Position numbers and translations under genes: made by a program. 64,000 bases of DNA from assembly GCA_030429205.1 (NCBI GenBank), contig JAUICZ010000001.1:982806-1046805 (forward strand), given 5' to 3'. A model generated the notes under the pieces. The model was given only the letters and a program-made list of their open reading frames with translations. It was not told where the DNA came from and searched no databases. Positions 54,212-56,086 of the stretch are shown one piece after another (the stretch's first letter is position 1; every line of letters starts with the position of its first letter). Origin of the DNA: Bacteroidia bacterium. GTDB lineage: Bacteria > Bacteroidota > Bacteroidia > Chitinophagales > Chitinophagaceae.

Positions 54212-54658
54212 TTACTCACCACTTACTTCAAACTCAATCTCGATCACATTCTCTTTACCGAAGTCTATTTGAGCCTGGTGTGTACCTGCTTCTTTAATAT
54301 CTTCCGGAATAGTGATACGACGACGATCGATCTCGTAACCTTTTTGCTCACGTATAGCACGTGCTAACTGAATAGAGGTAACAGATCCGAAGATCTTACC
54401 GCTAGTACCAACCTTAGCACCTATTTTAACAGGGCTTGCTTTAAGTACTTCAGTTACTTTAGCTATTTCAGCCATTAATTTGTCCTCGCGCTTTTGGATT
54501 TGCTTGCGACGCTCTTCTAACTCTTTCAAATTAGTTTGGCTGGCCTCAACTGCAAATTTTTGAGGTATTAGGTAGTTACGGGCATATCCCGGCTTAACTT
54601 CTACCAGCTCATGGGCTGCGCCCAGGTTGTCTACATCTTTAATTAATATAATTTGCAT
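54212..54658 (-). CDS. rplI: Ribosomal protein bL9
   Basis: Large-subunit protein of 148 aa with the N-terminal rRNA-binding domain (LIKDVDNLGAAHELVEVKPGYARNYLIP pattern), a long connecting helix (about 40-75) and a C-terminal domain. Standard length. Third gene of rpsF-rpsR-rplI; 10 bp after rpsR. Confidence 0.97.
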   Translation of the reverse strand: MQIILIKDVDNLGAAHELVEVKPGYARNYLIPQKFAVEASQTNLKELEERRKQIQKREDKLMAEIAKVTEVLKASPVKIGAKVGTSGKIFGSVTSIQLARAIREQKGYEIDRRRITIPEDIKEAGTHQAQIDFGKENVIEIEFEVSGE

Positions 54659-54954: not shown

Positions 54955-55326
54955 TTACGCTTCTTCTGTTTGAGGTGCAGCTGTAGCAGATACTTTGTTA
55001 CGCTTTTTAGCGTTGTATTCTACAGCATACTTGTCCAGTTTAGTGATCATGTGGCGCATTACAGCTTCGTCCCTGTTCATGTCTATCTCCATAGGAGAGT
55101 TCATGCTAGGGTCTGCCTGGTACTCAAGTACCCAGTAAAGGCCTGTTGTTTTTTTATCGATCGGGTAAGCTAGAGAGCGTAAGCCCCATGCATTCTGGTG
55201 AACAATTTTTCCACCGTTTTTTGTAACGTACTCTGCGTACTTCTTTTGTGCAGCTTTGTAATCATCTTCTGCCAGTACAGGAGTGAAAATGACCATCAGT
55301 TCGTAGTCCTGAAGTTCTGTTGCCAT
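54955..55326 (-). CDS. rpsF: Ribosomal protein bS6
   Basis: Small-subunit protein of 123 aa with the ferredoxin-like fold (YELMVIFTPVLAEDD, LRSLAYPIDKKTTGLYWVLEY, MNRDEAVMRHMITK) and a short charged tail. Partner of bS18. First gene of the operon; it is preceded by a structured 5' leader. Confidence 0.97.
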   Translation of the reverse strand: MATELQDYELMVIFTPVLAEDDYKAAQKKYAEYVTKNGGKIVHQNAWGLRSLAYPIDKKTTGLYWVLEYQADPSMNSPMEIDMNRDEAVMRHMITKLDKYAVEYNAKKRNKVSATAAPQTEEA

Positions 55327-55355
55327 AATTTTGGTTTAATTAAAAAATAATGTTT

Positions 55356-55415
55356 GTCCCTCATATCCGGCAGCAACGCTGGGTACCCTTTCGGGCAGCC
55401 GAATATTTTCGGGAC
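55356..55415 (-). promoter_or_regulatory. Structured rpsF leader RNA, likely S6:S18 autoregulatory site
   Basis: On the minus strand, GUCCC at the predicted 5' end (55415-55411) pairs with GGGAC (55360-55356). Inside, AUAUUCGGC pairs with GCCGGAUAU (9 bp). The closed part holds a CCC-GAAA-GGG hairpin and a possible CAGC-GUU-GCUG hairpin. Such leaders are known in other bacteria to bind the bS6:bS18 complex; the sequence here is assigned by position and structure only, not by a database match. Confidence 0.6.
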
Positions 55416-55417
55416 GG

Positions 55418-55451
55418 CAAAGGTAAGTAGTTTTTCTGAAATATGTACAAA
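55418..55451 (-). promoter_or_regulatory. Promoter of rpsF-rpsR-rplI
   Basis: TACCTTTG (55418-55425) with TTTG at 55448-55451 on the minus strand, 22-nt spacer. It places the mRNA start at the first base of the leader stem. Confidence 0.6.
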
Positions 55452-55474
55452 TATTTACATCTCAAACACAAAAA

Positions 55475-55502
55475 CTCCCACCACGTTACGGCGTGGCGGG
55501 AG
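55475..55502 (-). terminator. Terminator of the 55529 gene
   Basis: On the minus strand CTCCCGCCACG and CGTGGTGGGAG pair over 11 bp (one G-U) around a 6-nt loop, then TTTTTG. It begins 27 bp after the stop codon. Confidence 0.8.
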
Positions 55503-55528
55503 CGAAAATATGAAAAACACTAACTATT

Positions 55529-56086
55529 TTATTTTTGAGTAGCTGTATATACTACGTCTACAGCGTATACACCCGCAGGGTAAGCAAATCCCGGAGTAGC
55601 TTTATACTTGATGTCGAAAGTTTGGTTACCACCACGGCTACCCCCTTCTATAAGATCTTGGTCAGCAGCAGTAAGGCTGGCATATGCAGTGCTTGAGAAA
55701 GGAGAAGCAATGGCACCACCGGTGTTGTTACCTGTAACTTTCAGGTTAAGAACATTTTGTACCGGCATAGTTGGAGCAGGTGTTGTGTTACCAGAGTAAG
55801 TAAAACTGGCTGCATTAGCTTTTACGGTTACGTCGAAGTCTTTGTTAGAACGTACTTTCAATTGTTGGTCGTTACTTTCCACACCGTTAGCGTAATCGTT
55901 AACAGAGTTGAAAGGGATAGTTACGTCAGAACCGATAGAATTACCATTACCGGTGAAAGTGATCTCGATTGCATTACTCAACTGTAGTTTTACAGTTTGA
56001 GAAGCATTAGCTGATTGATTTGTGCTTTGAGCGTTAGCAGAGATAGTTACTGTTGCGAAAGCTGCGATTGCGATTAATTTTTTCAT
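55529..56086 (-). CDS. Secreted beta-rich protein, unknown
   Basis: Protein of 185 aa with a signal peptide (cleavage near SANAQS). The mature part is Ser/Thr/Asn-rich with alternating strands (VKLQLSNAIEITFTGNG, QQLKVRSNKDFDVTVKA) and ends in PAGVYAVDVVYTATQK, giving an overall look of WxL, fimbrial or DUF4402-type beta-sandwich proteins. Assignment to a family is uncertain. It is expressed alone from a promoter preceded by two direct repeats, and has its own strong terminator. Confidence 0.7.
   Translation of the reverse strand: MKKLIAIAAFATVTISANAQSTNQSANASQTVKLQLSNAIEITFTGNGNSIGSDVTIPFNSVNDYANGVESNDQQLKVRSNKDFDVTVKANAASFTYSGNTTPAPTMPVQNVLNLKVTGNNTGGAIASPFSSTAYASLTAADQDLIEGGSRGGNQTFDIKYKATPGFAYPAGVYAVDVVYTATQK

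What the first reader, a model, noticed from the sequence alone, without database searches (positions are those of the whole stretch)
55356..55451. Compact structured leader in front of rpsF-rpsR-rplI
Seen: the predicted mRNA starts at GUCCC, which pairs with GGGAC 51 nt later; within it there is a 9-bp helix and a CCC-GAAA-GGG hairpin. The promoter (TTTG-N22-TACCTTTG) ends where the stem begins. Known: bS6:bS18 represses its own operon through leader RNAs in several bacteria. Inference: this is the Bacteroidota version.
Basis: partly seen in the sequence, partly recalled or inferred. Interest (0 to 1): 0.5.

Follow-up and report, generated by a model that had tools for sequence, protein, structure and literature searches.

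The report
Ribosomal-protein leader that copies rRNA
The messenger RNA for ribosomal proteins S6, S18 and L9 in this bacterium begins with a small folded element that looks like the spot on ribosomal RNA where S6 and S18 bind, so the cell probably uses it to turn the operon down when it has enough of these proteins; it is a lineage-specific version of a known kind of switch.

Summary
The structure is real and conserved. It lies on the minus strand before rpsF-rpsR-rplI. 58 leaders from 16 genera of one family (Chitinophagaceae: Taibaiella, Flavipsychrobacter and relatives) support three helices by compensatory change (89.8% of cells paired against 76.8% in shuffles; 173 double changes against 58). 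The promoter sits at a fixed distance from the stem. Family 16S rRNA has CC-N-A-UUGC in the same context at the S6:S18 site; the proven E. coli S6:S18 leader has AAUCCG. Best reading: an autogenous bS6:bS18 operator that copies the rRNA site. It is not 'the Bacteroidota version': strong model matches were confined to one clade of the family (phylum outside the order not searched with the model). Other genera carry a different, also covarying, three-way-junction leader with the same UCCA core, or a short leader. Rfam does not recognise it, but its RpsF_leader model rings only in E. coli among 14 controls. New variant of a known kind; ligand and mechanism are inferred.

The parts
55448..55451 (-). 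-33-like TTTG of the rpsF promoter
   Evidence: sequence; weakly conserved: 35 of the 56 leaders with a -7 box have TTG/TTTG 16-25 nt upstream of it
55418..55425 (-). -7 box TACCTTTG (consensus TAnnTTTG)
   Evidence: 56 of 58 leaders have it; in 55 of these the stem's UCC starts exactly 3 nt later; consensus from passages of PMC7366714 and PMC9723704
55411..55415 (-). P1, 5' strand GUCCC, at the predicted transcription start
   Evidence: of the 4 P1 pairs in A2, 3 have double changes, 88.9% of cells paired
55398..55406 (-). P2, 5' strand AUAUUCGGC
   Evidence: 7 of 9 pairs with changes on both sides, 89.4% of cells paired
55384..55397 (-). P3 hairpin UGCCC-GAAA-GGGUA; length and sequence vary widely in relatives, closing pair U-A or C-G in 57 of 57 distinct rows
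   Evidence: 7 of 7 pairs with changes on both sides, 91.0% of cells paired
55372..55383 (-). conserved bulge CCCAGCGUUGCU, proposed bS18 recognition strand; invariant CC = 55382-55381, UUGC = 55376-55373
   Evidence: of 58 leaders: CC in 58, UU in 57, UUG in 52, exact UUGC in 40; same order of elements in the 16S strand after helix 23
55363..55371 (-). P2, 3' strand GCCGGAUAU
55356..55360 (-). P1, 3' strand GGGAC
55327..55355 (-). 29-nt A/U-rich unstructured spacer to the start codon, no Shine-Dalgarno sequence seen
   Evidence: sequence, fold; in the 58 leaders the rpsF ATG begins 10-34 nt after the element
54955..55326 (-). rpsF (bS6)
   Evidence: Pfam PF01250 96.6 bits
54669..54935 (-). 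rpsR (bS18)
   Evidence: 53% identical to E. coli S18; E. coli K60 and R63 are K72 and R75 here, R61 is K73
54212..54658 (-). rplI (bL9), named by sequence and place
   Evidence: order rpsF-rpsR-rplI on one strand in 107 of 107 loci
55474..55503 (-). terminator-like site behind the upstream gene, which suggests that rpsF has its own transcription unit
   Evidence: consensus scan

Best explanation
It is a cis-acting autogenous operator of the rpsF-rpsR-rplI operon. The mRNA starts within or next to P1; P1, P2 and P3 form one long arm with a bulge of about 12 nt on the 3' side, between P3 and P2. The bulge presents two invariant cytosines and, mostly, UUGC, which resemble the strand of 16S rRNA beside helix 23a that bS18 grips (C719-C720 in E. 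coli numbering). When bS6:bS18 is in excess over rRNA, the heterodimer binds the leader and lowers translation of rpsF, and by coupling of rpsR and rplI, perhaps with faster decay of the mRNA. Shown here: structure, covariation, promoter phasing, gene context, clade distribution, resemblance to rRNA. Inferred: that bS6:bS18 is the ligand (about 0.8); that the effect is repression of translation rather than of transcription or stability (about 0.6).
For: Covariation in all three helices on 58 leaders: 0 of 500 shuffles reach any of five measures, slid structures pair 30-50% of cells. 58 of 58 aligned leaders are followed by the rpsF N-terminus; operon intact in 107 of 107 loci. On the tree the 40 rows with the element plus two with divergent forms make one branch, SH-aLRT 100. 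CC is invariant; in E. coli the equivalent pair is needed for regulation and copies C719/C720 of rRNA, contacted by S18 K60 and R63 (PMC4647458, parts 1-3 of 5 read); both residues are kept in this bS18. 16S of family genomes reads GAAC[A/U]CC-N-A-UUGC after the helix 23 hairpin in 9 of 9 family genomes in which the 16S pattern was found (12 of 37 genomes searched had it in all). In the three of these that carry this leader, CC-N(2-6)-UUGC occurs nowhere else in the 16S stretch examined, one stretch being truncated and one partly masked. The E. coli leader reads hairpin-AAUCCG-stem and scores 110 bits with Rfam RF02893.
Against: The third base of the known CCG is A in the window and in 43 of 58 leaders, G in 13, U in 2. 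In the three genomes with both, the rRNA has CCG and the leader CCA (G457, G588, G351), so that base does not track the rRNA. Exact UUGC is in 40 of 58; the rest are UUGU 10, UUCC 5, UUGA 2, one other. Spacing from CC to UUGC is 2 nt in rRNA, mostly 4 (2 to 5) in leaders. In six of the nine family 16S the pattern has a second hit far from the site. The rRNA comparison was made after seeing both sequences. RF02893 does not match, though that model rings in E. coli alone of 14 controls. No binding or expression data. No start codon or Shine-Dalgarno sequence lies in the structure, so how binding would block initiation 29 nt downstream is not evident.
Confidence: 0.76

Rival explanations
1. The leader is an autogenous operator, but bL9 (rplI product), or bS6 or bS18 alone, is the ligand.
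For: rplI is in the operon in 107 of 107 loci; in operons of E. coli or B. subtilis the ligand of a leader is most often not the product of the immediately downstream gene (PMC7247131, passage).
Against: The conserved nucleotides resemble the S18 site of 16S rRNA; in E. coli neither protein alone represses (PMC4647458). No bL9-binding leader is known to me (recall).
Confidence: 0.08
2. Transcription attenuation: the leader stem competes with or acts as a terminator; U-rich sequence (AUUAUUUUUU) follows P1.
For: A U-rich stretch follows P1 in the window and, by eye, in many relatives.
Against: The terminator scan finds none on the minus strand in the leader, only the upstream one; in the window the U run starts several nt after the stem. 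I did not search for an alternative antiterminator helix.
Confidence: 0.08
3. A 5'-terminal stability element: the stem at +1 protects the mRNA from 5'-end-dependent decay, without a protein ligand.
For: P1 lies at a fixed distance from the -7 box in 55 of 58 leaders.
Against: Stability alone does not explain the invariant CC and nearly invariant UU in the bulge or the resemblance to rRNA. It may hold in addition to the main reading.
Confidence: 0.08

Closest known systems
Widespread S6:S18 rpsF leader (Matelska 2013 and Fu 2014, not held, known through PMC4647458, PMC7247131 and PMC10931766; Rfam RF02893 for the E. coli type)
   Same: In front of rpsF; stem, hairpin and bulge with two conserved cytosines that copy C719-C720 of 16S rRNA; E. 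coli AAUCCG, here mostly UAUCC[A/G].
   Different: Mostly CCA in place of CCG; bulge of about 12 nt with UUGC in most; extra P1 stem at the predicted transcription start; no Shine-Dalgarno sequence seen in the stem; not matched by RF02893.
Chlorobi S6:S18 leader (PMC7247131: section 5 and passages read)
   Same: Lineage-restricted leader of the rpsF operon, proposed ligand S6:S18.
   Different: Said by its authors not to appear to resemble the rRNA; its sequence and structure were not visible to me, so no direct comparison was made.
Class B leader of other Chitinophagaceae genera (this work, alignment A4)
   Same: Same gene and -7 box; a variable hairpin followed by [U]GUCCA or close forms and a CCCA/UGGG closing stem; 16 pairs, 95.1% of cells paired, 43 double changes against 12 in shuffles (14 leaders).
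   Different: Three-way junction with an extra AAUCUG-type hairpin; no P2; UCCA lies directly before the closing stem; no UUGC.

Membership tests
S6:S18 complex-binding rpsF leader | Lies in the 5' UTR of the operon with rpsF and rpsR | tested here: met
   (that it is transcribed is inferred from the promoter)
[quoted passage not shown]
   P2 stem, P3 hairpin, bulge of about 12 nt; covariation
S6:S18 complex-binding rpsF leader | The two conserved cytosines of the bulge | tested here: met
   58 of 58; window C55382-C55381
S6:S18 complex-binding rpsF leader | Full CCG trinucleotide | tested here: not met
   CCA in the window; CCG in 13 of 58 leaders
S6:S18 complex-binding rpsF leader | Resembles the S6:S18 site of 16S rRNA | tested here: met
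   compared with knowledge of both sequences, and with a spacing difference
S6:S18 complex-binding rpsF leader | Binds S6:S18 and represses rpsF | not testable with these tools
   needs experiment
Rfam RF02893 RpsF_leader | Score over the gathering cut-off of 37 bits | tested here: not met
   no match at E<=10 in the window, none at E<=1 in 16 loci, 11 of them with this leader, 0 of 118 genomes of the phylum over cut-off; control: E. coli 110 bits
Chlorobi S6:S18 leader | Its consensus sequence and structure | not tested
   figures and supplements not available here

The most novel reading that the evidence does not exclude
Within one bacterial family the S6:S18 operator has been rebuilt at least twice (bulged long arm in the Taibaiella clade, three-way junction in others) and lost elsewhere, keeping little more than a UCC[A/G] strand next to a hairpin; the bulged form additionally copies a feature of the lineage's own rRNA (UUGC where, as I recall, E. 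coli has UGGC). mRNA operators would then follow rRNA drift, in bacteria whose bS6, bS18 and bS21 also hide the anti-Shine-Dalgarno sequence.
Probability: 0.4. Interest if true: 0.6.

Novelty: new variant of a known kind. Interest (0 to 1): 0.45.

Why it matters
It gives strong comparative evidence for a structured rpsF leader, and a likely bS6:bS18 site, in a Bacteroidota clade. There, ribosomes do not recognise Shine-Dalgarno sequences because bS21, bS18 and bS6 hide the 3' tail of 16S rRNA (PMC9976891, start of abstract in a search listing; passage of PMC10931766). A repressor that cannot act by covering a Shine-Dalgarno sequence must work in another way, so this is a clean test case. Two unlike architectures in one family are a natural experiment on how an RNA copies a protein-binding site of rRNA.

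Tried and rejected
Rfam at permissive thresholds on the window, on 16 loci and on 15 more: no leader family; the weak PyrG_leader match overlaps the upstream terminator. The AGC-GUU-GCU mini-hairpin of the minimum-energy fold: complete in 22 of 58 leaders, rejected. Attenuation: no terminator-like site on the minus strand in the leader. A phylum-wide element: leaders of 22 non-family loci and 20 further loci do not show it by eye; the model itself was not run outside the order. 16S of the window's own genome: not found in the held assembly, so 16S was read from other genomes (12 of 37 matched). Alignment A3 held four loci on the wrong strand and was discarded for A4. A4 holds the 14 leaders that a pattern picked out, so its CCA and TGG are partly by selection; its two inner hairpins are not. 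By that pattern 11 of the 40 genus representatives are class B. The labels B, C and D are rough (pattern-based; L250 is class B by A4 but labelled C). Of the 68 genomes with a match, seven score 20-28 bits away from rpsF or not checked against it (G342 at 28.1 bits and G367 lie elsewhere; G263, G543, G608, G615, G626 not checked); I take them for chance. Literature: Matelska 2013 and Fu 2014 are not held, so I cannot say whether their alignments already contain such leaders; the listings showed no paper on this element that I recognised. That E. coli 16S reads UACCGGUGGCG at the site is recalled.

Full report
What is there. The window carries rpsF, rpsR and rplI on the minus strand. Every element in the finding is at the stated place. 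The 61-nt element folds well below shuffled sequence (z -4.34, 0 of 200).

Comparison. Genomes of the window's family are unnamed in the search, but named records with similar rpsF are Chitinophagaceae; the nearest are MAGs labelled Taibaiella sp. BROCD030, UBA6221 and UBA5543 at 82-83% identity. rpsF was found in 376 of 394 genomes of the family. 59 upstream regions were read first, of family and other loci. Twenty-two with the element were aligned (A1). I call this element class A. A covariance model (R1) matched 68 of 394 family genomes at E<=0.05. Of these, 59 score at least 31 bits, in 16 of 101 genera. Next to rpsF: 56 of the 59 shown by translation, two more by coordinates (G631, G345), one not checked (G467). 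Two weaker matches (G632, G611) also lie directly before rpsF; seven others do not or were not checked. The window's own genome has one match, the leader. A rebuilt model (R2) found, in 248 genomes of the order, five strong matches, all in the family, and three weak ones at 22 to 26 bits outside it. In 48 named loci it found 12 leaders, among them those of Taibaiella soli and Flavipsychrobacter MAGs, and none in the loci named Chitinophaga, Thermoflavifilum or Pseudoflavitalea.

Structure. In 58 leaders from 16 genera, aligned to the model (A2), the 20 pairs of P1, P2 and P3 form in 89.8% of cells; shuffles give 76.8%, and sliding the partners gives 30 to 50%. 17 of 20 pairs have changes on both sides; there are 173 such cells against 58 in shuffles. 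That alignment was fitted to the model, which favours the structure. The MAFFT alignment of 22 gives 88.7% against 79.9% and 55 double-change cells against 22.7; there two of the five measures are reached by some shuffles (2 and 15 of 500). P3 varies most and covaries in all seven pairs; P1 is the least variable and so the least tested. The conserved unpaired strand is the bulge between P3 and P2, YCC[A/G]nnnUUGC: CC in 58 of 58, UUG in 52, exact UUGC in 40.

Start of the transcript. 56 of 58 have TAnnTTTG, and in 55 the UCC of P1 comes exactly 3 nt later. The box lies at -12 to -5 in a flavobacterium, so transcription should begin within a few bases of the stem. This is a prediction.

Why S6:S18. 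In E. coli the S6:S18 complex represses rpsF through a leader whose two conserved cytosines copy C719 and C720 of 16S rRNA, contacted by S18 K60 and R63 (PMC4647458, parts 1-3 of 5). The E. coli leader reads hairpin-AAUCCG-stem (my reading of its fold). Here the arrangement is hairpin-YCC[A/G]...UUGC-stem. In the 16S of nine family genomes the strand after the helix 23 hairpin reads GAAC[A/U]CC-N-A-UUGC. A search for CC-N(2-6)-UUGC over the 16S stretch, up to about 1.5 kb, hits that site in all nine and in one genome of another family of the class, not in two more distant members of the phylum. In six of the nine there is a second hit far away; in the three that carry this leader it is the only one, with the caveat that one of the three stretches is truncated and one partly masked. 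The bS18 of the window keeps K60 and R63. Against: the third base is A rather than G in most leaders and differs from the rRNA in the three genomes with both; the spacing is longer by about two; 18 of 58 leaders lack exact UUGC.

Evolution. One tree of concatenated bS6, bS18 and bL9 pieces of 100 loci puts the 40 class A rows and two divergent forms (L005, L059) on one branch with SH-aLRT 100 (quick method, one support measure). Other genera carry class B: CCCA-[AAUCUG-type hairpin]-[variable hairpin]-[U]GUCCA-UGGG, whose 16 pairs form in 95.1% of cells against 77.9% in shuffles (14 leaders). Many others, including the Chitinophaga loci, have a short leader with neither (class C). So 'the Bacteroidota version' is too wide.

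Mechanism. The likeliest course is repression of translation initiation by bS6:bS18, with possible loss of mRNA. Bacteroidota ribosomes do not use Shine-Dalgarno pairing, and I see no such sequence in the structure; the start codon lies 29 nt downstream, in the 58 leaders 10 to 34 nt. How binding blocks initiation is the open step.

Known or new. RF02893, the Rfam family for this kind of leader, does not see it. That is weak evidence of novelty: among 14 control genomes the model rings only in E. coli and not in B. subtilis, although the B. subtilis leader binds S6:S18 in vitro (stated in PMC4647458). The two founding papers are not held. I therefore file it as a new variant of a known kind: it works like the S6:S18 leader, while the full CCG, one stated feature of that motif, is not met in the window.

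Noticed in passing
L122-L161, L224-L271 upstream of rpsF: Many class B and class C leaders of the family carry a CAGGG box just before the start ATGAACAAT, while class A leaders lack it and mostly start ATGGCAACA. In class C a GCCC at the predicted 5' end could pair with it near the start codon.
   Followed up: no
L193-L201: In families of the phylum outside the window's class, six of nine leaders read (L193, L195, L196, L199-L201) have CCTGCTC, a hairpin, and CCA close to GGA or AGGG; they may correspond to the published Chlorobi type, which I could not see. No Rfam match at E<=0.5.
   Followed up: partly
L005, L059, L127, L137, L152: Divergent leaders (genera g3, g214, g123) with a similar arm and a CC..UUGC strand but other helix sequences; one search shows no model match in G017, the genome of L005.
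   Followed up: partly
L012, L013, L015, L016: In another family of the class the leader begins with a small CCCG-(N)-CGGG hairpin right after the -7 box.
   Followed up: no
window 55474-55503: Terminator-like site on the minus strand behind the gene at 55529-56086, between it and the rpsF promoter.
   Followed up: partly
L202-L210: The base after C719-C720 in 16S rRNA varies in this bacterial family (G in four, A in two, C in two, U in one of nine genomes), although CCG is described as the recognition triplet elsewhere.
   Followed up: partly
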